A stretch of DNA of 39,966 bases from a virus, in the IMG/VR virus record IMGVR_UViG_3300000117_000050, positions 1 through 39,966 of that record. One strand, written 5' to 3'. The translations under genes and the position numbers were made by a program. Of this stretch, positions 2,101-37,343 are shown one piece after another. The stretch's first letter is position 1, and each line of letters starts with the position of its first letter. The notes beneath the pieces were generated by a model. The model was not told where the DNA came from and did not search any database. It worked only from the letters and a program-made list of their open reading frames with translations.

Positions 2101-4352
2101 TGCTCAGTGAGGTCACCCCAACTTGGCCCAATTTCGAAATCTACTTTAATAGGGCATTTTGGAATTGATAGTCCTCTATCTGTTTGAATACACTTTCTAG
2201 CATTTTCAATATATTCATCTACTAAATCTTCTCTAACTTCTGATACGATTGAGTCATGAACAACAGTAAAAGGCTTAATATCATCTGTATACTTTTTATG
2301 TTCTATCCATTTAACTAAATCAATTACACCTAAAATATTTATATCTGATGCTACTGACTGAACTAAGAAGTTTACCCCTGAACGAATTGCGTGCTGAGAA
2401 ACTCCTCTGTTTGGAGATTTAGCTTCAGGTAGTCTACGTTTTCTACCGAAGAAAGAGTAGATAAAAGCATGATTTTCAATTTGTCGGTTTGAAGAGTCAA
2501 TAAACTTTTTAAGTGAACGAGCTTCGTTAAAATACTTTTGAATAAATTGTTTTGATTGAGCACTAGTAATTTCTTCTCCTGCCTTAGCATCTTTATTAAC
2601 AGTTTCTGCTATTTTCGCAGGTCCCGCTTGATACATGATTCCGAAAGTAATAGCTTTTGCGTATTGTCTCTCATTTGGGTGGAGTTTTTTAACATCGTTA
2701 ACTTCACATGATAAATTGAACATTTGTTTCGCAACATACGAGTGAAAGTCAAGTTTATCAATAAAAGCTTTTTGCAGAAACTGATCACCACTAAGCATAG
2801 CTGCATAATAAACCTCTGCAGTACCAAGATCACATTGTACAATTTTGTAACCAGGCCTAGCTTTAAATAGTTTTTTGATATCTTTGTTATCTCTCGGTAT
2901 ATTTTGGTAGTTGAGATTCCCACTACTACTAAGGCGACCACTGGTGGTCCCATGAATATTAAAGCCACTTCTAAGCCTTCCATCACGATCTACTCCATTT
3001 TTGATATTTGAAATATAAGTACCAGCCATCTTAGATTTTTCTCTAAGTTCTAGTACTGCTTCAGATAAAGGATGCCCAAGATTTGATAATACTTCTTTAT
3101 CAACTGACCAAGCACCTGTCTCTGTTTTTTTGGTTGGTTTTAGTTTTATAATATTAAAAAAGAGATCTCTAAGCTGCATAGTTGAGTTTGGATTAAAAGT
3201 TTTTTCATATACTCTTTCAAAACGTTGAACTGCCTCATGAGTGTTTATCTCTTCTAAACATTCTTCTACATCAATTTGGTATTGTTCTGCTAACCATGTA
3301 ACTTGTTCTATATTGATAGGCCCACCGTTCTTTTCTAGAGTTTTCATAGCATGAGTTGCAGGCATTAGAATATTATTATATAAATCATTAAATTCTTCAC
3401 TTTTTTCAACAAGAGGTCTAAACTTACCATATAATTGAAAGGTTGCATCAGCATCTTTACAAGCATAAGGAGCTAAAATGTCGCTTGGTAACATACCATA
3501 ATTAAAATCTGCTAGTTTTACTTTATTTTTCCTAGCCCATGATTTTTTATAGTCATCTAATTCTCTTTCATAATCTCCTAAATCTGTAAATCTAAGTGCT
3601 AAAGGCTTAAGACCATGAGTTCCGACAGACTCTTCTAAGCAATAATGTAATAACATTGTGTCTTCATACTGTGGAAATTGAAATCCCATCTCAGTTTCCA
3701 TATAATTTGTATCAAACTTAGCATTATGAAAAATACATAATTTGTTTACAAATAAGTCATGAAACCATTGTTTATGTTTATTAACTATATCTACCGATAC
3801 ATATATACCTTGATGAGGTCTTGTAGATATAGCAATACCTAGAATTGTACCAGTGTGAGGAGATACAGAAGTAGTTTCAATATCCACTACTAGTTTCTCT
3901 GCGTCTTCTAACTGATCTTTATATTGACTAAACTGTTCTTCAGTTTCTATAAAACAATAGTCTTTCTCAGCTTGCTTACCTACGTCTTCGCCTTGTAAAA
4001 GTTTTGGAATTTGTAAAAAGGCTTTTTTAATATCATCTTGTAATTGTGGTTTGATGATAGTTATATTAGGATGCATAATAGGTAAATACTTTTTTTCTAA
4101 GAAAACCCCATTATATTTTTGTATGCCTGTCATACCTGCAACATATTTTAAAGAATCAGCGCCTATAGGAGCTAATATTTTGTAATTATCTAATTCCGTC
4201 ATTTCTAAATCAATATCTTTTTTTAGAATTTTTTCTTTTCTACCAGAATGTAAATATTTTACATCGTAATCTACATCTTTTAAGTATTTATCAATTATTT
4301 TATTTGCATCTTTTTCTATAGCACTTGCAAATACAAAACACACATCATTCAT
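2097..4352 (-). CDS. polA: Family A DNA polymerase with 3'-5' exonuclease
   Basis: Replicative polymerase of 751 residues. The DEDDy exonuclease domain shows Exo I VVDIETT (D157, E159), Exo II FHNAKFD (N210, D214) and Exo III Y296-x3-D300. The polymerase domain shows motif A CDLGTAEV (D508), motif B RQYAKAITFG (R562, K566, F570) and motif C VVHDS (H699, D700). There is no 5'-3' exonuclease domain, as in T7-type phage enzymes. F570 aligns with Pol I Phe762, a residue variant reported to associate with virulent phages. Two deviations stand out: motif A reads DLGTAEV instead of the usual DYSQIELR type, and motif B continues FGIMYQ where YG is usual. It overlaps dadA upstream and a 70-codon gene downstream. 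Confidence 0.97.
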   Translation of the reverse strand: MNDVCFVFASAIEKDANKIIDKYLKDVDYDVKYLHSGRKEKILKKDIDLEMTELDNYKILAPIGADSLKYVAGMTGIQKYNGVFLEKKYLPIMHPNITIIKPQLQDDIKKAFLQIPKLLQGEDVGKQAEKDYCFIETEEQFSQYKDQLEDAEKLVVDIETTSVSPHTGTILGIAISTRPHQGIYVSVDIVNKHKQWFHDLFVNKLCIFHNAKFDTNYMETEMGFQFPQYEDTMLLHYCLEESVGTHGLKPLALRFTDLGDYERELDDYKKSWARKNKVKLADFNYGMLPSDILAPYACKDADATFQLYGKFRPLVEKSEEFNDLYNNILMPATHAMKTLEKNGGPINIEQVTWLAEQYQIDVEECLEEINTHEAVQRFERVYEKTFNPNSTMQLRDLFFNIIKLKPTKKTETGAWSVDKEVLSNLGHPLSEAVLELREKSKMAGTYISNIKNGVDRDGRLRSGFNIHGTTSGRLSSSGNLNYQNIPRDNKDIKKLFKARPGYKIVQCDLGTAEVYYAAMLSGDQFLQKAFIDKLDFHSYVAKQMFNLSCEVNDVKKLHPNERQYAKAITFGIMYQAGPAKIAETVNKDAKAGEEITSAQSKQFIQKYFNEARSLKKFIDSSNRQIENHAFIYSFFGRKRRLPEAKSPNRGVSQHAIRSGVNFLVQSVASDINILGVIDLVKWIEHKKYTDDIKPFTVVHDSIVSEVREDLVDEYIENARKCIQTDRGLSIPKCPIKVDFEIGPSWGDLTEQ

Positions 4353-5553
4353 TTATTATCTCCGTTATTTGTCTAGCTGTATACGCACTTAATGTCCACC
4401 CTAAATGTCCATGTCCTGTATTATACCAAACATTAGGGTGTTTGCCAACTTTAACTATCGGCATCATGTTAGGAGTCATAGGACGTAAACCTGCCCATGA
4501 CTTGTAATCTCGTAGCTCTAATTTTGGGAAATACTCTCTAACCCAGTTCATTAAAGGCGTGATTCTATCTATTCTAATATCTCTATTTTGGCCATTAAAT
4601 TCAGCTGTTCCAGCAACTCTGAATACACTTCCTAATGTAGAGGTAACTATTTTAGCTTCATCATCTAATAAAGAAACTTTAGGAGCATGTTCTTCTTGCC
4701 CTTTTATATTTATACTAACCGAGTAACCTTTTACTGGGTATATAGGTATATTATCACCTAATTCCTTACCTATTTTCTTTGAGTATACTCCCCCACAAAT
4801 TACAAGACCTTCATAATGTAAGTCATTTTTATTTCTATCAGTGAGTCTCCATCTTTTCTTATTACGGCTTAATCCCAGACAGGCTTTATTATACCAATCA
4901 ATTCTAGTGTCATATCTAAACTTAACACCCATAGTTTCACATTTCTTAGCTAGATTATAACAGAACTTGTGTATATCTCCAACTCCGTCATAGCTAGTAT
5001 ACATACCCCCAACAATACCGTCTGCTTTTAGTGTAGGCTCTTTTAGCTTAACCATATTTTCATTTATTACACTACGATGTAAACCTCCAGATTTATATAA
5101 CTCGTTTACCTTTTTTGCATGATTATACTCTTTTTCACTCTTGTATATGTGCATAATTCCACAATCACTTCTATCATATTCGATATCTTCAAATTCTGTT
5201 CTCATAATACGAATAGAGTGCATTGCCATTTCAGTAGTGGTCATTGTATTTTCTTTGGCGTGTTTAATATTAGCTATAAATTGCAACAACCATTTATATT
5301 TTGCGAAATCTAAATCATAACGCATTTTAAGTGGTGCATCTCTCTTAAAAGACCAGGCTATACCTTTAGCAACATTTGCCCATGAGTTCCACACTTCTGA
5401 GTTCGAGGCTGACAGTTGACCTCCATTTGCGTGCGATGCAAGCATTGCGGGATGCATGTTTGCATCTATAACAGTGACTTTGTGCCCTGACTGTCGTAAA
5501 AAATACGCAGTTGTCACTCCTGTTATTCCTGCTCCAATTACTGCTAATTTCAT
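4345..5553 (-). CDS. dadA: DadA-like FAD-dependent D-amino-acid dehydrogenase
   Basis: A flavoprotein of the DAO/DadA family, which oxidises D-amino acids to 2-oxo acids and ammonia and passes electrons to the respiratory chain. The N-terminus has the FAD-binding GxGxxG fold (AVIGAGITGVTTAYFL, residues 4-19) followed by an acidic strand end (VIDA). The C-terminus carries the family signature AGLRPMTPNMMPIV and WYNTGHGHLGWT. Length (402) is close to the family's 415-435. It is wedged between primase (4-base overlap, 5550-5553) and DNA polymerase (8-base overlap), so it is expressed with replication proteins. In a phage it is best seen as an auxiliary metabolic gene; the substrate (D-Ala from peptidoglycan, or another secondary amine) is not shown by the sequence. 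Confidence 0.9.
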   Translation of the reverse strand: MKLAVIGAGITGVTTAYFLRQSGHKVTVIDANMHPAMLASHANGGQLSASNSEVWNSWANVAKGIAWSFKRDAPLKMRYDLDFAKYKWLLQFIANIKHAKENTMTTTEMAMHSIRIMRTEFEDIEYDRSDCGIMHIYKSEKEYNHAKKVNELYKSGGLHRSVINENMVKLKEPTLKADGIVGGMYTSYDGVGDIHKFCYNLAKKCETMGVKFRYDTRIDWYNKACLGLSRNKKRWRLTDRNKNDLHYEGLVICGGVYSKKIGKELGDNIPIYPVKGYSVSINIKGQEEHAPKVSLLDDEAKIVTSTLGSVFRVAGTAEFNGQNRDIRIDRITPLMNWVREYFPKLELRDYKSWAGLRPMTPNMMPIVKVGKHPNVWYNTGHGHLGWTLSAYTARQITEIINE

Positions 5554-13691: not shown

Positions 13692-14351
13692 TTATTTAGT
13701 TTCATCATGCGGCAAACTTCCGTCATTCATAAATCCACCTTTTTTTCTTTTGTCTAACCAACTATGTTCTACATAATGAACATACTTAGCGTTTGGATCT
13801 TTGTTTAGAATGTAGTGAAGTTGTTCATTCTTATCATCTATAGGTATATTAAGTATATCATTCAAACTTTTTACATAATGATGTCTGAACATATATAAAA
13901 GTTCTACACTTAAAAATGTATGAGGAAATTGTGTTATGTCAGCTAACTTGTTTAAAAAGTTATGATAACTTTCAACACCTCTTTTTCTAGTTTGGTTTTG
14001 AGCGGTAATGTTTTGATCTCTTCCGATGATTCCTACTAAAAGATTACCTTTTTTACTTAATCGTTCTAAAACTTCAGTGTAGTTGGGATAAACCGTTTGT
14101 TTTTTACCATCGATATCATCAATAAAAGGGCCACTAACACTAATTAAGTAGTTTTGCTCTTTCCAAAAATAACTATCAATTTTAGATGGATCAGACCATA
14201 TATCTGCAAAAGGAGCTACGTGGTGAGGAATCCAGTATTCTTTTAAAAGTTTACCCCATCCATACACATCTTTGTGCATAGATAGGACTTTAGAAAATAC
14301 ATGATTACCAGTACCTTGCGGTCCTGTAATAACTAATATATTAGGCTTCAT
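13692..14351 (-). CDS. P-loop NTPase/sulfotransferase-like protein, 219 aa
   Basis: N-terminal strand and loop VITGPQGTGNH (residues 7-17) resemble the PAPS- or nucleotide-binding loop of sulfotransferases and related P-loop proteins, but without the GK[ST] of a true Walker A. The rest is aromatic and His-rich, with no membrane segment. It overlaps tctC by 4 bases. A distantly similar protein (MNRIFLTGVPGSRWSG) flanks the same tct pair on the other side, so both could modify a shared substrate. The 3' end contains an inverted repeat GAAACTA/TAGTTTC around the stop codon. Confidence 0.6.
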   Translation of the reverse strand: MKPNILVITGPQGTGNHVFSKVLSMHKDVYGWGKLLKEYWIPHHVAPFADIWSDPSKIDSYFWKEQNYLISVSGPFIDDIDGKKQTVYPNYTEVLERLSKKGNLLVGIIGRDQNITAQNQTRKRGVESYHNFLNKLADITQFPHTFLSVELLYMFRHHYVKSLNDILNIPIDDKNEQLHYILNKDPNAKYVHYVEHSWLDKRKKGGFMNDGSLPHDETK

Positions 14352-15403
14352 TTTATTAGCTCTTGTTTATAAATTGCTTTAATCCCGAAAGCCTCTTTAT
14401 TAAATTTAACTAAAGTTTTCAAAGCATCAGCAGTGATAAAAGTCATTAAAGTTTTTACGTGATCGTTTCCTTTGTCACCTAAAATCCACTCATATTTACC
14501 TACCTTCTTTTGTATTTTTTTAACTGACTCGGGGTCATTTGCTACTTTTCTTAAAGCTTCTACAAGTTTTGCTCTGTTAGGATTACCTTTGTTTACCCAT
14601 AATGCTTTTTGTAAACCATCTCTAAAGCTCTTAACTAATTTATAGGCTTTATACAAATCACTATGCGGTTTAACTCTGTTTGCGCCATAAAATAAATCTT
14701 CCATTAATATTCCTGGGTAGTTTGGGTCATCTGCATGACTTCCGTCTGATTGAAGTATGCCGTGATGGAACCAAAGAGTTGCTTGACCTTTATCAATAAT
14801 AGGTTGTACATGCTTTTTAAAAGCTGCTGGGTTATCTCTAGTGCCGTGTAGTTCTCCTCGCTTAAATGCTAAACGTCTCTCACTACCTTTCATACCTTTA
14901 ATCCAATTTACTTTCTTTTTAAAACAAGCGATATATTCATCTGTCGTAAGTCCGCTACCGCATTTTAGTAAAGTCATTGCAATACCTTCAGGTATTTTAC
15001 CTCCACCACCAGAAAATGACGTTGGCTCGCTGCTATAAGGATCGTGTGATTTTTGAACTGCTGTAATAATATTAAGATTCATTAATCCTACACTATCATA
15101 ATCACGATAGTTATAATCTACCTTTTCATTTAAAAATGAAACCCCATTGCCGCCATTTGATACCATGATAGTTTTATCATTAAAACGTAGATCATTGTGG
15201 AACTTATTAAACCCTGGTATGTCTCTAGCACCTCTTATATGTTTTAGGATGATTTTCTCTCCTAAATGTTTTTCTAATTCTGTAGCTACTATCTGAGCCC
15301 ATTGGCTAGTGCCGCCTCCAGGTTTTTGTGGAATAATCATTGTATAGTCAGCCCATGCAGATGCTGAAAATAACAACATTGATAATACTATTAATTTATG
15401 CAT
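14348..15403 (-). CDS. tctC: TctC-type periplasmic solute-binding protein
   Basis: Binding component of a tripartite tricarboxylate transporter (TTT). A clear signal peptide (residues 1-18, cleavage after ASAWA before DYT) directs it to the periplasm. The segment IIPQKPGGGTSQWAQIVA then LGEKI and GARDIPGFNKF corresponds to the family's N-terminal ligand loop (usual pattern vPfaaGGgtDxxAR...NrpGAgG). Length of 351 exceeds the usual 300-330. It starts 8 bases inside the end of tctA, so the two are co-translated. The ligand is probably a carboxylate, by family; the sequence does not show which. Confidence 0.85.
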   Translation of the reverse strand: MHKLIVLSMLLFSASAWADYTMIIPQKPGGGTSQWAQIVATELEKHLGEKIILKHIRGARDIPGFNKFHNDLRFNDKTIMVSNGGNGVSFLNEKVDYNYRDYDSVGLMNLNIITAVQKSHDPYSSEPTSFSGGGGKIPEGIAMTLLKCGSGLTTDEYIACFKKKVNWIKGMKGSERRLAFKRGELHGTRDNPAAFKKHVQPIIDKGQATLWFHHGILQSDGSHADDPNYPGILMEDLFYGANRVKPHSDLYKAYKLVKSFRDGLQKALWVNKGNPNRAKLVEALRKVANDPESVKKIQKKVGKYEWILGDKGNDHVKTLMTFITADALKTLVKFNKEAFGIKAIYKQELIK

Positions 15404-16832
15404 AATCTATTTTACCTTTTCTAATTATACTGTACGTGAAAACACCGATTATTAATACGACTAGACATATGAATATCGGTCTTATACTTAATGTTTCTAG
15501 GGTGTATAACCCTGTAATTTGTAATGTTAAACCTTCAACTTTTTCTGCAAGAATATAACCTATCAACAAAGCAGGTCTACTAAATTTAAAATGCTTACAT
15601 GAAAATCCTATTATAGAAAAAATTCCTAACATTGCCAAGTCCTCCCATCCTCCTGTGTACTGCATAGAAGTAAAAATGATTAATGCTAATAAAAATGGAA
15701 AGTAATACTTGTACGGTACTCTTGCAAGGGCACTTATTGGTCGAATTAAAAGTATACAGATTAAAGCAACGATAACAGTAGCCCCAAGAAAACCAAAAGT
15801 CATGCTAGTAAATAGTTCAGTATCTTCTGCTATATCAGGTGTACCAAGTTCAATATTTAGGTACATGAACAGACTCATAAGAATCGCTGCAAACTTAGCT
15901 CCAGGTATACCAAATATAACAGTCGTAATCATTGATGTTGCTTTTTGAGAGTTATTTGCACCTTCAGGTCCGATGACGCCCTTAATATTACCATTTCCAA
16001 ATTTTTCTTTTGGATTTGTAGCAACAGCTGATCCGTAAGCCATCCAGTCTGCCATTTGACCGCCTAGACCAGGCAAAAGTCCTATGAAAGCACCTATAAA
16101 TCCTCCTCTAAGAGCTAACCATCGATTAGTCCAAACTGCTTTCATTCCTTCTAATAATTCACCTTTTTTCAATCCGCTATTAGATGTACTAGTTTTAGTA
16201 AATAATCCTTTTGTTAATTCTGGTATTGCAAACAATCCAGCAGCAACTGCTATTATCTGAATACCATCTTCTAAGTAAAACCACCCCATAGTAAATCTCG
16301 GTTCATTATTATCAGGGTTTACTCCAACCATACCAATAAGTATGCCAAAAGCAATAGCTAAAATACTACGAAACCAGTACTGATTACTTAAAAAACCTAC
16401 TGTTGCGAGTGCTAGCATAGTAAAAGCCCAAAGTTCAGGAATTCCTAGAATCATTATCAAGTTTGTGTACCACGGTAAAAGTAAAAAAACTAAACATCCC
16501 CATATTAATCCATTTACTGTAGAAGTTGTAACTGCAGCACTAATAGCATAGCCAGCTCTACCTTGTTGCGCTAAAGGAAATCCATCAACCATTGTAGCAG
16601 CAGCACTATTTGCTCCAGGTATTCCTAATAATATTGCCGTAAAACTATCACCAGTCGTACTAGCGGCTACAACTGCCATTAAAAAAATAACACCAAGATA
16701 GGGATCATGCACAAAATAACTTATGAAACCAAAAAGAGCTACAAGACCTGTTGTGGCGCCTGCACTTGGTATAATTCCAACTATTAAGCCATAGAATACT
16801 CCTGCTAAAAGAGTAGCTATCATCTCAATCAT
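15396..16832 (-). CDS. tctA: TctA-type large transmembrane transporter subunit
   Basis: Large membrane subunit of a TTT transporter, 478 residues with about 10-12 hydrophobic helices. The two internal repeats each carry the glycine/proline motif of the family: GIIPSAGATTG near residue 19 and GLLPGLGGQ near 250. GDSFTAILLGIPGANSAAATMVDGFPLAQQG (about 61-91) and FGIPGAKFAAILMSLF are also TctA hallmarks. In cells TctA works with TctB and TctC; only tctC follows here (8-base overlap) and no four-helix TctB is encoded nearby. The start overlaps the upstream gene in an ATGA junction. Confidence 0.93.
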   Translation of the reverse strand: MIEMIATLLAGVFYGLIVGIIPSAGATTGLVALFGFISYFVHDPYLGVIFLMAVVAASTTGDSFTAILLGIPGANSAAATMVDGFPLAQQGRAGYAISAAVTTSTVNGLIWGCLVFLLLPWYTNLIMILGIPELWAFTMLALATVGFLSNQYWFRSILAIAFGILIGMVGVNPDNNEPRFTMGWFYLEDGIQIIAVAAGLFAIPELTKGLFTKTSTSNSGLKKGELLEGMKAVWTNRWLALRGGFIGAFIGLLPGLGGQMADWMAYGSAVATNPKEKFGNGNIKGVIGPEGANNSQKATSMITTVIFGIPGAKFAAILMSLFMYLNIELGTPDIAEDTELFTSMTFGFLGATVIVALICILLIRPISALARVPYKYYFPFLLALIIFTSMQYTGGWEDLAMLGIFSIIGFSCKHFKFSRPALLIGYILAEKVEGLTLQITGLYTLETLSIRPIFICLVVLIIGVFTYSIIRKGKIDYA

Positions 16833-27739: not shown

Positions 27740-28651
27740 TTATTTGTTGTCTAGGCTAATCCAAACGTCAACGATATTCCAAAAGTTTTTAAGGCTCATA
27801 CCCTTTGCTTCCATAATATCACCTGTCAAAATATGGCTTTTACCGTAGTATGCTTTTAAGTCAGCATCTTCCTTAAGCATTTTCATCACAGCAGTTTTTG
27901 CTACTGCTGTTTGCTTTGCATTCATGTTTACACCCTGCATTACACCATAGGTTGCCACATCTTTAAGCTTCCAGTTTGGAAACACATCTGCAAACTTCAC
28001 AGTTCCGTTTACACCTGCCGTAGTTGCAAAACAATTTACACCAGGGGTGTTGATCTCACGAGCAGTATAACCAGTGTAAATCATATCTACGTCACCAGCA
28101 ACTAGACCTTTAAGAGTCTTGCTAGAACCACTGAAATCTACACGATTAAATTTTATATTGAATTGCTTTTCTAAGTCAATAAACATTCCTTGCGGATAGT
28201 CAGAAACACCTATATTGATCTTTCCATCTTTTCCTTTTATCCACTTCTCAAAATCTGCTTTTGAATTAACATTATTGTATGGCTTCTTTGCTACACAAAG
28301 AGTCATACTTCTTAGAAATAACATTGATACTGTACTGTCTTCAGTAATAGCAGGGTTTGGGTCACATTTTTTTCTGAATTTATCAGATTTAAATTTATTA
28401 GCACTGATTAAATACATTGCAGCTCTGTCAGTATTTTTTACCCACTTATTGTTGGTATGGCAATTTTTAGTCCAGTGAAGCTTACTATCAAAACCTTGGC
28501 TTTGAAGAGCCTTATGGAACATAACTCCTTGTTTCCAAGAATTGCCTGTATTACCAGACGGTACAATGATATCTAACTGATCTGCTGTTGCAGCAAATGA
28601 AGTAAGTGTTAGTGCAATAGCAAGTGCGCTAGTTTTCTTAAGTAAGTTCAT
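27740..28651 (-). CDS. tctC: TctC-type periplasmic solute-binding protein (second copy)
   Basis: A signal peptide of 23 residues (cleavage after ATA before DQL) precedes a TctC-like body: DIIVPSGNTGNSWKQGVMF at the N-terminus and NIGVSDYPQGMFIDLEKQF later. The consensus ligand loop is altered (PSGNTGNSW rather than aaGGgtD). The copy is 303 residues long and only weakly like the first one at 14.3 kb, so ligands may differ. AGGAG lies 6 bases before the ATG. It is followed by a strong terminator. Confidence 0.8.
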   Translation of the reverse strand: MNLLKKTSALAIALTLTSFAATADQLDIIVPSGNTGNSWKQGVMFHKALQSQGFDSKLHWTKNCHTNNKWVKNTDRAAMYLISANKFKSDKFRKKCDPNPAITEDSTVSMLFLRSMTLCVAKKPYNNVNSKADFEKWIKGKDGKINIGVSDYPQGMFIDLEKQFNIKFNRVDFSGSSKTLKGLVAGDVDMIYTGYTAREINTPGVNCFATTAGVNGTVKFADVFPNWKLKDVATYGVMQGVNMNAKQTAVAKTAVMKMLKEDADLKAYYGKSHILTGDIMEAKGMSLKNFWNIVDVWISLDNK

Positions 28652-28670: not shown

Positions 28671-30041
28671 TTACATTAAATTGATTTGATAAAAGGCATA
28701 AAACGCCTCTAATATTTTGTCTTGTAGCATAAAAGCGATCATTAAGACTAATGGTTCAGTTTTTCGCAGTAAATATCCTAGCGGTGTTAAAACTAACATC
28801 ACTGTAAGATGATACCACATATCATAATCAAGTGACCCAGTGTATAGCACGAGCCCGATTAGTAATATTCCTGTCCCGATTAACATGTAATTCATATTAA
28901 CCTTTTGTAGGATGTTAATGTACTTTACTGCAGGCCAGCATAGTATTAACCCTATTGCATTAACTATAACAAACCAAGCACACAGATGCAAGAACAAATT
29001 TGTTTTGATTGTTGTCGTGTAATTGATGATATAGGTATTTATTTCTATAATTGCCAGTAGGAGTGTTTCACTACCAGAAATCGGAATTCCTATTAGTAGT
29101 AAAGGCATTAAACCAGTCATGTTAGTTGCATTGTTTGATGTCTCAGCTGATACTAATGACTTGATATCTCCTTCCTCAGAATATGTACCTCTTTTTCTCC
29201 CTAAATACCTTTCAAGGGCATAGCTAAGATTAGTTCCGACAGCTGTTCCAACATGAGGCACTAAGCCAATAAAAGCTCCTATAATACTACCTCTAATAGA
29301 TGATGTTATATTACCAAAATATTCTTTTATATGTAACCAGACAGGAGTTTTATCTTCATAAACTCTATCAGTTTTAAAGTTTTTAAATTGATCTTTTACC
29401 TGTAATAACACAGGAAATACATACAAACTTACCATTACAGGAAATAAAGGTAAACCAGTTATCAACTCAGGAAATCTTTCATACGGAAGGTAATCTTCAG
29501 CAAAAATAGTAGGAGGAACACTTAATTGCCCTATACATGATAGTAAAAATCCTAACGCAAATATAAACGCATTCTGTATCTTACTATGTCCAAGAAGAAA
29601 TACGACACTAAAAGATGCAATTAGTAATATTACTGATTGAATATTGTTATTATAAAATTTAGTGATCAGTTCGACTGCTGAAGGTAATGCTAATAAAACC
29701 ATACCTAAAGCAATAAAAGCACCAACTACACTTCCTATTGCCGCATTTGAGATAGCTATATTTCCTAGTCCACGAGAAAACATTCGTTTGCCCTCTCTTA
29801 CTGCAGGAAGACTACTAGCTTCTCCAGGGACTCCAAATACCGTAGCAACTACACTACCGCTAAACTGTGATACTGAAGTTAGTGCCATATAAAATAATAA
29901 TAGTTGTAATAACGTTGAATCTAGTAAAAATGGATAAACTAAAAACAAAGTGACTAAGTTACCTATTCCAGGAATAAACCCTGAAAAATAACCACAAGTT
30001 ATACCAGCTAAAACATGAGCTGTGTCGCCTAAATCAATCAT
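28671..30041 (-). CDS. tctA: TctA-type large transmembrane transporter subunit (second copy)
   Basis: 456 residues with about ten hydrophobic helices. The repeat motifs are GFIPGIGNLVT near residue 21 and GLVPHVGTAVG near 265, with ATVFGVPGEASSLPAVREGKRM (about 66-87) and LLIGIPISGSETLLLAIIEIN as other TctA signatures. It differs clearly from the copy at 15.4 kb, so this is not a recent tandem duplication. It is followed after 19 bases by its own tctC. No TctB is seen. The PP-loop gene stops 3 bases upstream of its ATG. Confidence 0.9.
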   Translation of the reverse strand: MIDLGDTAHVLAGITCGYFSGFIPGIGNLVTLFLVYPFLLDSTLLQLLLFYMALTSVSQFSGSVVATVFGVPGEASSLPAVREGKRMFSRGLGNIAISNAAIGSVVGAFIALGMVLLALPSAVELITKFYNNNIQSVILLIASFSVVFLLGHSKIQNAFIFALGFLLSCIGQLSVPPTIFAEDYLPYERFPELITGLPLFPVMVSLYVFPVLLQVKDQFKNFKTDRVYEDKTPVWLHIKEYFGNITSSIRGSIIGAFIGLVPHVGTAVGTNLSYALERYLGRKRGTYSEEGDIKSLVSAETSNNATNMTGLMPLLLIGIPISGSETLLLAIIEINTYIINYTTTIKTNLFLHLCAWFVIVNAIGLILCWPAVKYINILQKVNMNYMLIGTGILLIGLVLYTGSLDYDMWYHLTVMLVLTPLGYLLRKTEPLVLMIAFMLQDKILEAFYAFYQINLM

Positions 30042-35032: not shown

Positions 35033-35264
35033 CTTTTATTGTGCCATCTTCGTATGCGGCATCCCATAAATTTCTATTAAGTCTTACTCTCTTATCATTA
35101 ACATCTACGTAATCTGTTTCTAGTTCTTTTTTTACTTCTTCAACTCTATGTTGCAGCCAACTGATAGATGTATGTATATGACCGGTATCATGAGGTTGTA
35201 ACCTACTTTTTGCTACTGCAATTTCATCCATTAACATTATAAGTTTATCGGTATTTTTTATCAT
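35025..35264 (-). CDS. Small helical protein, 79 aa
   Basis: Charged, helical and coiled-coil-like (MLDEIAVAKSRLQP-type heptads and an acidic middle), ending with LWDAAYEDGTIKGV. No known motif. Overlaps guaC by 4 bases (ATG in the guaC stop) and the acyltransferase by 8, so it is co-translated. Function unknown. Confidence 0.65.
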   Translation of the reverse strand: MIKNTDKLIMLMDEIAVAKSRLQPHDTGHIHTSISWLQHRVEEVKKELETDYVDVNDKRVRLNRNLWDAAYEDGTIKGV

Positions 35265-36289
35265 TTTTCTTCTCCAAAAATTGTGTTGTGTGTGTTATTA
35301 ACTCTTATAAAAGTGGCACACTTTGATAAAGATTTTAGCCTCTTTGCACCTACGTAAGTACAGGCAGATCTAATACCACTTAGTATATCTATTAAGGTAT
35401 TATTAACAGCACCTTTATAGGGTACTTCAACTGTTTTACCTTCTACCCCTCTATAATCTTTAGTAGGAACATTGTGTCTGCTCATTGCAGATTCAGAAGA
35501 CATTCCATAAAATCTCATTTTCCCTTCAACAATTTCGCCATCACACTCATCATGCCCAGCTAAAATTCCTCCGATCATTACGAAATCAGCTCCTGCAGCA
35601 AATGCCTTTACAATATCTCCTGAGTTATTACACCCTCCATCCGCAATAATATGAGCATTAAGCCCGTGTGCTGCATCTGCGCATTCCATTACTGCACTTA
35701 GTTGGGGATATCCTACTCCAGTTTTTATTCTTGTAGTACAAACAGAGCCAGGTCCTACACCGACTTTTATAATATCAGCTCCTGCTAAAATTAATTCTTG
35801 TGCTATGTCCGCGGTCACAACATTACCAGCAACAATAATTGCATCTGGCAATCTCATTCGCATATCTTTGATTGCTTCAATTACAGAAATAGTATAACCG
35901 TTAGCAACATCAATTCCAACCATATCCCACTTTAAGTGATTTGTTACCATATGTCCTACATCATCAATACCACCCATCATACATACATTTTTACCTAGCA
36001 TCTTATTATTAGTTGTACCGATTCTCCACCAAGTAGCATCTTTCTTCATAAAATGCCTTGCCGGACACGTAATCATACCGTGTTCTAACATTTTTTTATG
36101 CATTTCAGGCGTACCTACAGTATCCATATTAGATGCCATAATAGGAACTCCAGTCCATTCCATTTTACTATGTTTAAATTTAAATGTTCGGGTAATATCA
36201 ACATCATAACGGGATGTTAGTGTTGATCGCTTAGGTCTCAGAAGAACATCTGAATAATCTAACTTAATATCGTCTTCGATTCTCATCAT
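35261..36289 (-). CDS. guaC: GMP reductase
   Basis: Reduces GMP to IMP and ammonia with NADPH. The 342 residues follow GuaC closely: [18 protein letters not shown] (10-27), SNMDTVGT (53-60), [11 protein letters not shown] with catalytic C184 and T186, [20 protein letters not shown] (191-210), MSSESAM and EGKTVEVP with E283. GMP reductase-specific features, and not the IMPDH flap or CBS domains, make this GuaC. Two ATGs are adjacent (36289 and 36286). GAGG lies 2 bases before the first and 5 before the second, and alignment also favours the second. A long structured leader precedes it. Confidence 0.95.
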
Positions 36290-36622: not shown

Positions 36623-36814
36623 ATCCTTACAAGGAATAAGGGGAGAGATTCTGTTTCCGCGCTCTCTCCAGGCGCATAGAAATTAAGCGGCTAGCGCTAA
36701 CTCCTGAGGTGCAAAATTATCGTTTGCGTTTATTAAAATCTTGCGGTTAAGGTCGCTTGCGCACCTGCTTCTAAGTATAGGTGTTTACTCATCTGTCGAT
36801 CCTATTTCACCCCC
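36617..36814 (-). ncRNA. ssrA: tmRNA, coding piece of a permuted two-piece ssrA
   Basis: Mature 5' end at G36814: GGGGGUGAAAUAGGAUCGACAG matches the tmRNA 5' acceptor strand and D-like loop. GGGGGUG pairs fully with CACCUCC in the acceptor piece at 37051-37057, giving the G3-U70 pair that alanyl-tRNA synthetase reads. CCUAUACUU (36781-36773) pairs with AAGUA and UAGG of the acceptor piece to form helix P2 (9 bp, 3-nt bulge). The tag frame is at 36683-36727. An H-type pseudoknot follows: GCGC/GCGC at 36675-36672 and 36662-36659, with loop GGAGAGA (36669-36663) pairing with UCUCUCC (36648-36642). A small hairpin (36641-36625) probably ends the piece; the 3' end is approximate. Role: rescue of stalled ribosomes with SmpB, which is not encoded here. 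Confidence 0.93.
36683..36727 (-). other. tmRNA proteolysis-tag reading frame
   Basis: The resume codon GCA (36727-36725) opens a 14-codon frame that encodes ANDNFAPQELALAA and ends with TAA. ANDNFA is a start typical of alphaproteobacterial tags as I recall them, and the terminal ALAA is the degron read by ClpX/ClpA in bacteria. With the non-templated alanine the added tag would be 15 residues. The long middle (PQEL) is not familiar to me. Confidence 0.93.
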
Positions 36815-36820
36815 AATGGG

Positions 36821-37030
36821 TTATGCTGCGAGCCAAGTATTTACTTCAAAAACTTCAATAAGCATAAAGCTAAAAAGTAATAAGAGTATACTATATACAA
36901 TTAATTTACCACTGAAGTTGTGTGCCGCCATTTTAATTGCTATAAGTTCATTGCCTAAAAATCTTAGTGCTAGCTCAAACTCATTATGCTCATCTTTAAT
37001 GACTACGCCGTTTTTCTTTTCTTCGCTCAT
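36821..37030 (-). CDS. Small membrane protein nested in the tmRNA intervening segment
   Basis: A 69-residue protein with a charged N-terminal half (MSEEKKNGVVIKDEHNEFELAL), then FLGNELIAIKM, and a hydrophobic helix (residues about 44-63, LIVYSILLLLFSFMLIEVF). It has the look of small single-helix proteins of marine myoviruses. The ATG lies 16 bases after the encoded CCA end of the acceptor piece (37047) and the stop ends 6 bases before the mature 5' end of the coding piece (36814). Weak AG-rich sequence (AGAGAGAAA) precedes the start. It therefore occupies almost the whole 232-base segment removed when the precursor is processed. Confidence 0.7.
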   Translation of the reverse strand: MSEEKKNGVVIKDEHNEFELALRFLGNELIAIKMAAHNFSGKLIVYSILLLLFSFMLIEVFEVNTWLAA

Positions 37031-37046
37031 AATTTTCTCTCTTTTT

Positions 37047-37100
37047 TGGTGGAGGTGTCGGGTACCGCCCCCGAGTCCAGTCTGCCTACTCTACTTATAC
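37047..37100 (-). ncRNA. ssrA: tmRNA, acceptor piece of the permuted ssrA
   Basis: Reading leftward: P2 strand AAGUA-(GAG)-UAGG (37096-37085), T-arm UCGGG / loop GGCGGUA / CCCGA (37074-37058), acceptor strand CACCUCC (37057-37051), discriminator A (37050) and an encoded CCA (37049-37047). The T-loop lacks the usual TTCRA sequence. This piece lies upstream of the coding piece, the permuted order of alphaproteobacterial two-piece tmRNAs. The 5' end is uncertain; the P2 strand begins inside the stop codon of the upstream 82-residue gene (TAA, 37097-37095). Confidence 0.9.
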
Positions 37101-37343
37101 CTCAAACAAAGCACTGTCTATATTAAGTTCTTTGAGTTCTTCTTTAGTATTGTAATTAAAGATTCTAAAACTATCTGCTTCAAGATCCCATACTAATTCC
37201 ATACCCTCTGGGTATTTGCTTTCAGAACCTGCACCTTGAACGTGCTTTTTTAAAAACGGTTCTGGTAAATCCCAAATTCTTGCGAAAACCATTTCTCGAT
37301 TTTCTCCGTTCTTTTTCTTAAAAGTTCCTTTGTATGCTTTCAT
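37095..37343 (-). CDS. Small hypothetical protein upstream of tmRNA, 82 aa
   Basis: Starts MKAYKGTFKKKNGENREMVFARIWDLPEPF, reminiscent of small phage proteins with a GTFxKKDGTxRxM beginning, and ends with an SH3-like pattern of strands (MELVWDLEADSFRIFNYNT). A GGAGAG lies 4 bases before the ATG and a promoter lies at 37368-37396. Its stop codon is part of the tmRNA P2 strand, so mRNA processing at the acceptor piece must trim right at its 3' end. Function unknown. Confidence 0.7.
   Translation of the reverse strand: MKAYKGTFKKKNGENREMVFARIWDLPEPFLKKHVQGAGSESKYPEGMELVWDLEADSFRIFNYNTKEELKELNIDSALFEV

What the first reader, a model, noticed from the sequence alone, without database searches (positions are those of the whole stretch)
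36815..37046. Protein gene inserted in the intervening segment of the split tmRNA
The 232-base stretch between the CCA end and the coding-piece 5' end is almost filled by a 69-codon ORF with one transmembrane helix. It starts 16 bases after the CCA and stops 6 bases before the cleavage site. As I recall, these intervening segments are short and non-coding. Here, RNase P and 3' trimming would release a mini-mRNA, so tmRNA maturation and protein expression could be coupled. This looks previously undescribed.
Basis: partly seen in the sequence, partly recalled or inferred. Interest (0 to 1): 0.9.

Follow-up and report, generated by a model that had tools for sequence, protein, structure and literature searches.

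The report
Small gene inside phage split-tmRNA spacer
In this marine phage a real, selectively conserved gene for a small membrane protein sits inside the throw-away spacer of a split ribosome-rescue RNA (tmRNA), and a wider search shows that many marine phages use this spacer as a slot for unrelated small genes, which appears not to have been described.

Summary
On the minus strand a permuted alpha-type tmRNA (Rfam RF01849 and RF04321) has a 232-nt intervening segment (IVS, 36815-37046). The IVS is filled by a 69-codon ORF that starts 16 nt after CCA and stops 6 nt before the coding piece. The ORF is a real gene. Homologues occur in more than 100 marine viral contigs. Two nested relatives differ by 25 synonymous and 5 nonsynonymous changes. 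Most homologues are free-standing, often just downstream of a tmRNA. The tree requires at least two separate moves into the IVS.

The larger result is that this is not a one-off. In viral contigs, 72 of 214 pattern-found permuted tmRNAs have an IVS of at least 100 nt. Of 59 dereplicated long ones, 42 carry a sense ORF filling at least 75% of the IVS, against 2 antisense. At least nine sequence-unrelated families show pN/pS of 0.09-0.37. Most viral IVS are closed by a covarying helix. Alphaproteobacterial IVS are short, and the long ones inspected are non-coding. So the IVS acts as a recurrent slot for small genes.

That translation and tmRNA maturation compete on one transcript follows from geometry but is untested. 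Regulated coupling is possible, not shown. No description was found in open-access papers.

The parts
37047..37113 (-). tRNA-like 3' (acceptor) piece of the permuted tmRNA, ending in CCTCCACCA (T arm, acceptor 3' strand, encoded CCA)
   Evidence: RF04321 match 37113-36683. Pairs 7/7 with the 5' end of the coding piece, with G3-U70 type wobble (sequence; fold).
36815..37046 (-). Intervening segment (IVS), 232 nt, absent from mature two-piece tmRNA
   Evidence: Bounded by CCA and the 5' GGGG of the coding piece.
36821..37030 (-). Nested gene: 69-aa single-TM protein MSEEKKNGVV...NTWLAA, stop TAA
   Evidence: 25 synonymous versus 5 nonsynonymous differences from nested L002; differences by codon position 6/0/24.
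37037..37041 (-). GAGAG, possible weak Shine-Dalgarno, 6 nt before the ATG
   Evidence: Sequence only; it did not reach the strict SD patterns.
37023..37032 (-). 5' arm of a predicted IVS helix UUAUG-A-GCGA that contains the start codon
   Evidence: MFE fold of the precursor. Not the canonical phage IVS closing helix, which is absent here. Nested relative L002 could pair AUUAUGAG with CUCAUAAU, but its MFE does not form it.
36821..36831 (-). 3' arm UCGC-AG-CAUAA of that helix, containing the stop codon
   Evidence: MFE fold.
36639..36814 (-). Coding (mRNA-like) piece of tmRNA, 5' acceptor strand GGGGGUG to the end of the RF01849 match
36683..36727 (-). Proteolysis tag frame ANDNFAPQELALAA*
   Evidence: Sequence; aligns with relatives.
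37095..37343 (-). Upstream 82-aa ORF in the same direction; its 3' end overlaps the acceptor piece by about 19 nt, suggesting one compact transcription unit
   Evidence: conserved upstream of the tmRNA in L002 and L003.

Best explanation
The 69-codon ORF is a working phage gene for a small single-TM protein that moved into the spacer of a permuted (two-piece) tmRNA gene. Because the spacer is cut away from mature tmRNA, marine phages repeatedly use it as a slot for small genes. One transcript would then serve two ends: RNase P and 3' processing release the two tmRNA pieces, and the spacer is translated either from the precursor before cutting or from the released fragment. A ribosome starting 16 nt after CCA, or stopping 6 nt before the RNase P site, would cover a processing site, so translation and maturation should exclude each other on one molecule at one moment. 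Shown: the anatomy, the coding selection, at least two independent entries of this family, the recurrence with unrelated families, and the covarying closing helix in most phages. Inferred: co-transcription, RNase P cleavage here, translation, and mutual exclusion.
For: Anatomy. Coding selection while nested: WIN/L002 25 syn versus 5 nonsyn; L015 clade pN/pS 0.17. Two entries: nested copies fall in two well-supported clades (100/99 and 100/98), with 0% of bootstrap trees joining them. Second family (62 aa): about 24 of 80 loci nested and the rest free; pN/pS 0.29 nested, 0.33 free. Third family (38-44 aa, TM): 65 of 80 loci nested, pN/pS 0.23. Survey: 42/59 sense versus 2/59 antisense filling ORFs. 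IVS of at least 100 nt in 72/214 viral versus 4/106 bacterial tmRNAs counted (its own listing shows three, one doubtful). Closing helix 86% paired versus 60% when arms are re-paired, maximum 64% of 500. SD-like sequence in the first 22 nt in 30/53 cargo IVS versus 7/84 non-cargo.
Against: No expression data. The window's IVS lacks the canonical closing helix and has only a weak SD. No function is known for the protein: no Pfam, PHROG or NCBIfam match. Many viral IVS (142 of 214) are under 100 nt and mostly hold no ORF, so cargo is not required.
Confidence: 0.7

Rival explanations
1. Dedicated regulatory coupling: the nested position is selected because tmRNA maturation controls the cargo protein, as in ArfA, where cleavage makes a non-stop mRNA whose product tmRNA tags. 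Cargo would be made only when processing or tmRNA is limiting.
For: In one class (for example the L081/L107 family, pN/pS 0.17) the frame runs over the RNase P site and stops at GAAA-TAG inside the tmRNA, so maturation would remove the stop. In another class the stop UGA lies 1 nt before the cut. AAGGA sits at IVS positions 2-6, inside the 5' arm of the closing helix, in 14/53 cargo versus 2/84 non-cargo IVS. ArfA precedent with an inverted repeat: PMC3989581.
Against: The window ORF has its own stop 6 nt before the cut and no SD inside a closing helix. The three reading frames across the conserved UUUAUGAUGGGG end all occur among cargo, as chance placement would give. Free homologues of the same families live without tmRNA.
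Confidence: 0.22
2. Silent passenger: the gene landed in a tolerant spacer and is no longer usefully expressed there.
For: The spacer is discarded from mature tmRNA, and insertions there are tolerated (IVS lengths 5 to 499 nt).
Against: Purifying selection in nested copies is as strong as in free copies. Nested copies of the 62-aa family keep full length with C termini adapted to the helix. SD enrichment in cargo IVS.
Confidence: 0.06
3. Mobile element: a homing or transposing cassette that targets tmRNA, like endonuclease genes in tmRNA group I introns.
For: tmRNA genes are known integration sites, and tmRNA introns sometimes hold endonuclease genes (PMC11915505).
Against: No endonuclease or recombinase match in the cargo proteins scanned. 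Cargo families are unrelated to each other and some also occur as ordinary genes. The IVS is not an intron and does not interrupt the T loop.
Confidence: 0.02

Closest known systems
Permuted two-piece tmRNA of Alphaproteobacteria (alpha_tmRNA RF01849, tmRNA_permuted RF04321)
   Same: Acceptor piece upstream of coding piece, IVS between them, alpha-type 5' end, G-U in the acceptor stem, ANDN...LAA-type tag
   Different: Bacterial IVS in the survey are almost all 71 nt or shorter and the long ones inspected are non-coding; here 232 nt with a conserved protein gene
Methylophilales phage Melnitz tmRNA (PMC9004378; MZ577097)
   Same: Marine phage permuted alpha-type tmRNA. Its 142-nt IVS also holds an unannotated ORF with an SD (IPKYLSG motif), and a 62-aa family gene lies directly upstream
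   Different: The paper describes the tmRNA and a glutamine riboswitch; no IVS ORF is mentioned in the passages read. That ORF has no stop inside the IVS
tmRNA gene with group I intron carrying a LAGLIDADG endonuclease ORF (PMC11915505)
   Same: Protein-coding sequence inside a removed part of a tmRNA gene
   Different: Standard-form tmRNA, self-splicing intron in the T loop, endonuclease cargo; here a permuted gene, no intron, small membrane or unknown proteins
Permuted tmRNA with tRNA-Ala or repeat in the IVS (GCA-2688965 sp002688965; HGM16780 sp944390355; PMC11915505)
   Same: Extra element in the IVS
   Different: RNA gene or repeat, single cases, not protein genes
E. coli arfA (PMC3989581)
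   Same: Possible parallel: small protein, inverted repeat at the ORF 3' end, RNA cleavage producing non-stop mRNA subject to trans-translation
   Different: Not nested in tmRNA, cut by RNase III, and the window ORF keeps its stop codon

Membership tests
Permuted (two-piece) alpha-type tmRNA | Covariance-model match over the whole permuted gene | tested here: met
   RF01849 100.5 bits (threshold 50) and RF04321 99.9 bits (threshold 47), full model
Permuted (two-piece) alpha-type tmRNA | Acceptor stem formed between the two pieces with alanine-type G-U pair and CCA | tested here: met
   GGGGGUG pairs with CACCUCC, CCA encoded; about 6.8 of 7 pairs expected in the fold
Permuted (two-piece) alpha-type tmRNA | Tag reading frame ending in a protease signal | tested here: met
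   ANDNFAPQELALAA*
Permuted (two-piece) alpha-type tmRNA | Processing into two RNAs that work in trans-translation | not testable with these tools
   Needs Northern blot or tagging assay
Group I intron tmRNA with homing endonuclease | Intron in the T loop of a standard-form gene | tested here: not met
   T arm is continuous and the gene is permuted; no Rfam intron match in the window
Group I intron tmRNA with homing endonuclease | Cargo is a homing endonuclease | tested here: not met
   No Pfam, PHROG or NCBIfam hit for the 69-aa protein
ArfA-type trans-translation-regulated gene | mRNA made non-stop by cleavage before its stop codon | tested here: not met
   Window ORF stop is 6 nt before the cut. 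Met in sequence for other cargo families such as L081/L107
ArfA-type trans-translation-regulated gene | Expression rises when tmRNA activity is lost | not testable with these tools
   Needs infected-cell experiment

The most novel reading that the evidence does not exclude
The spacer of phage split tmRNAs is a structured expression device. The closing helix that brings the two tmRNA ends together also hides the Shine-Dalgarno and last codons of the cargo gene, and RNase P cutting either frees the mini-mRNA or turns it into a non-stop mRNA that the same tmRNA tags. Each phage would thereby set the level of a small protein by its own ribosome-rescue capacity.
Probability: 0.2. Interest if true: 0.93.

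Novelty: new variant of a known kind. Interest (0 to 1): 0.8.

Why it matters
Split tmRNA spacers have been treated as processing waste. If phages routinely store and express small genes there, standard annotation misses a class of small proteins (ARAGORN missed this tmRNA, and the Melnitz IVS ORF is unannotated). A single transcript would carry both a structural RNA and an mRNA whose ends nearly coincide with RNA processing sites. It also makes a question testable in a cultured phage (Melnitz on OM43): how translation and RNase P share one molecule, and why phages carry tmRNA.

Tried and rejected
Chance ORF: rejected. Assembly artefact: rejected, the same arrangement occurs in several metagenomes. 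Duplicate copy of the gene elsewhere in the window: none found by tblastn. A group I intron or other Rfam RNA in the window's IVS: none. Function by family search: no Pfam, PHROG or NCBIfam hit; no tblastn hit in INPHARED for the window protein or the L046 homologue. A single origin for nesting: disfavoured by the tree. One ORF cluster (component 1) is an artefact, joined by the tmRNA-coded tail GGEIGST, and is not counted. Two bacterial 'long IVS' calls (931 and 1876 nt) are doubtful acceptor assignments. Structure prediction was not run, since a 69-aa single-helix membrane protein would not discriminate between explanations.

Full report
Observation. Rfam finds a permuted tmRNA on the minus strand (RF01849 100.5 bits; RF04321 99.9 bits, 37113-36683), which ARAGORN misses. 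CCA ends at 37047 and the coding piece starts at 36814. The 232-nt IVS between them holds a 69-codon ORF, 37030-36821, starting 16 nt after CCA and stopping 6 nt before the coding piece. Against dinucleotide shuffles the ORF length has p=0.005, the floor of 200 shuffles, and the antisense strand has 12 aa. The tmRNA looks intact: 7/7 acceptor pairs, CCA, and tag ANDNFAPQELALAA*.

The ORF is a gene. tblastn-confirmed homologues lie in 55 viral contigs with the window query and 67 with a nested relative, partly overlapping. The nested relative L002 differs from the window by 25 synonymous and 5 nonsynonymous changes (dN about 0.03, dS about 1.3), spread over codon positions as 6/0/24; L015 and L025 give 7/3/21. 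Nested copies of the L015 clade have pN/pS 0.17, and non-nested copies 0.20. The protein is one predicted TM segment with a conserved NEFELxLRFxGNE(L/I)xAIK region; no Pfam, PHROG or NCBIfam model matches.

Where relatives keep it. Most homologues are free-standing. In many the gene follows a permuted tmRNA by a few hundred bases, for example L007, L012 and L014, whose IVS is 27-31 nt. The closest non-nested relatives of the window copy are these free copies, and L009 even has a different ORF in its IVS. In a tree of 68 different proteins the nested copies fall in two separate supported clades: WIN and L002 inside a clade with L007, L009 and L012 (100/99), and L015, L025 and L604 inside another (100/98). 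No bootstrap tree joins them. So this family entered the slot at least twice, or entered once and left repeatedly.

A general slot. I scanned viral contigs for the conserved 5' end of the coding piece and paired each hit with an upstream acceptor. Of 214 unique pattern-found viral tmRNAs, 72 have IVS of at least 100 nt. Of 106 unique bacterial ones, one search used a count of four at that length, while its own listing shows three, one of them doubtful. A wider look at 289 genomes of the same class gave, among the listed matches, a longest IVS of 165 nt, and neither of the two longest is coding. Among 59 dereplicated long viral IVS, 42 have a sense ORF covering at least 75%, against 2 antisense; 35 have p of 0.05 or less against shuffles. 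Cargo proteins fall into many unrelated groups, nine of which have pooled pN/pS of 0.09-0.37, some from a single pair of sequences.

Two other families were followed. A 62-aa family (MEVIWHILLTVC...) is nested in about 24 of 80 loci and otherwise free; nested copies end ...GSMSL or GSVSL, coded by the helix arm, with UGA one base before GGGG, while free copies end ...GSKGV or GSTST. pN/pS is 0.29 nested and 0.33 free. A 38-44 aa TM family is nested in 65 of 80 loci, pN/pS 0.23, usually behind a short overlapping leader ORF. One cargo (L179) is DUF6356 (E 5e-12). Another (L190) has a free homologue in Pelagibacter phage HTVC010P. The cultured phage Melnitz has an unannotated IVS ORF and a free 62-aa family gene just upstream of ssrA.

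Structure. In viral IVS of 60 nt or more, the first 10 nt pair with the 10 nt lying 4 nt before the coding piece: 86% standard pairs, against 60% (maximum 64%) when arms are re-paired among sequences, with several pair types per position. The last four bases are usually UGAU. AAGGA sits at IVS positions 2-6 in 14/53 cargo IVS and 2/84 non-cargo viral IVS (Fisher p 3e-5), and any SD-like motif in the first 22 nt in 30/53 versus 7/84 (p 1e-9). The window is an exception: it has only an inward helix, UUAUG-A-GCGA with UCGC-AG-CAUAA, that contains its start and stop codons, and a weak GAGAG.

Mechanism. Most likely the spacer is a tolerated and reused gene slot, translated from the precursor or the released fragment. 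Geometry means a ribosome at the start or stop would cover a processing site. Whether phages exploit this for control is open. The strongest hint is the class whose stop lies inside the tmRNA, so that maturation would create a non-stop message, the logic known for ArfA (PMC3989581). The window ORF is not of that class.

Known or new. The 2025 tmRNA database paper reports a tRNA gene and a repeat inside single permuted IVS, and endonuclease ORFs in group I introns, but in the passages read no protein gene in a permuted IVS (PMC11915505). The Melnitz paper describes tmRNA and riboswitch but no IVS ORF in the passages read (PMC9004378). Searches for other reports found none. Subscription papers and preprints were not searchable, so novelty is likely, not certain.

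Limits.

Noticed in passing
window 15396-16832 and 28671-30041 (minus): Two TctA-family (tripartite tricarboxylate transporter) genes in one phage (Pfam PF01970, E 2e-94 and 1e-61), each beside a gene that reads like a periplasmic binding protein but has no Pfam hit (14348-15403, 27740-28651).
   Followed up: partly
window 4345-5553 and 35261-36289 (minus): Phage-encoded DAO-family oxidoreductase and IMP dehydrogenase/GMP reductase genes; the latter lies right after the tmRNA in the window but is missing there in relative L002.
   Followed up: partly
L129, L148, L159 and L662-L741 loci: The 44-aa IVS TM gene is preceded by a conserved 20-25 codon ORF (...GDSDEE(P/S)SxKK...) overlapping its start out of frame, so this IVS may hold two overlapping genes.
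   Followed up: partly
L585 3286-3427 (phage Melnitz MZ577097): Unannotated IVS ORF MFKWLSKTRLVV...IPKYLSGTR with an SD but no stop inside the IVS; the PKYL motif recurs in IVS ORFs of L147, L089 and L328, with a looser form in L044.
   Followed up: partly
L588 1533-1942 (Sinorhizobium phage Phosso PV764938): A 410-nt IVS in a jumbo-phage permuted tmRNA with no convincing ORF and no Rfam match of its own; possibly a structured RNA.
   Followed up: partly
L586 845-1278 and L587 895-1358: GOLLD RNA lies shortly upstream of the permuted tmRNA in two roseophages (V10, DSS3_MAL1).
   Followed up: no
L012, L014, L016, L028, L033, L035, L036, L041: Glutamine riboswitch aptamers 1-2 kb from the tmRNA in many of these marine viral contigs; in Melnitz one lies just after the tmRNA.
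   Followed up: no
L170 and L198 IVS, L175, L248, L152: Some long viral IVS hold non-coding, probably structured sequence (for example CUCGUCCAGUA...GGUAAGACAUU in L170) instead of, or in front of, an ORF.
   Followed up: no
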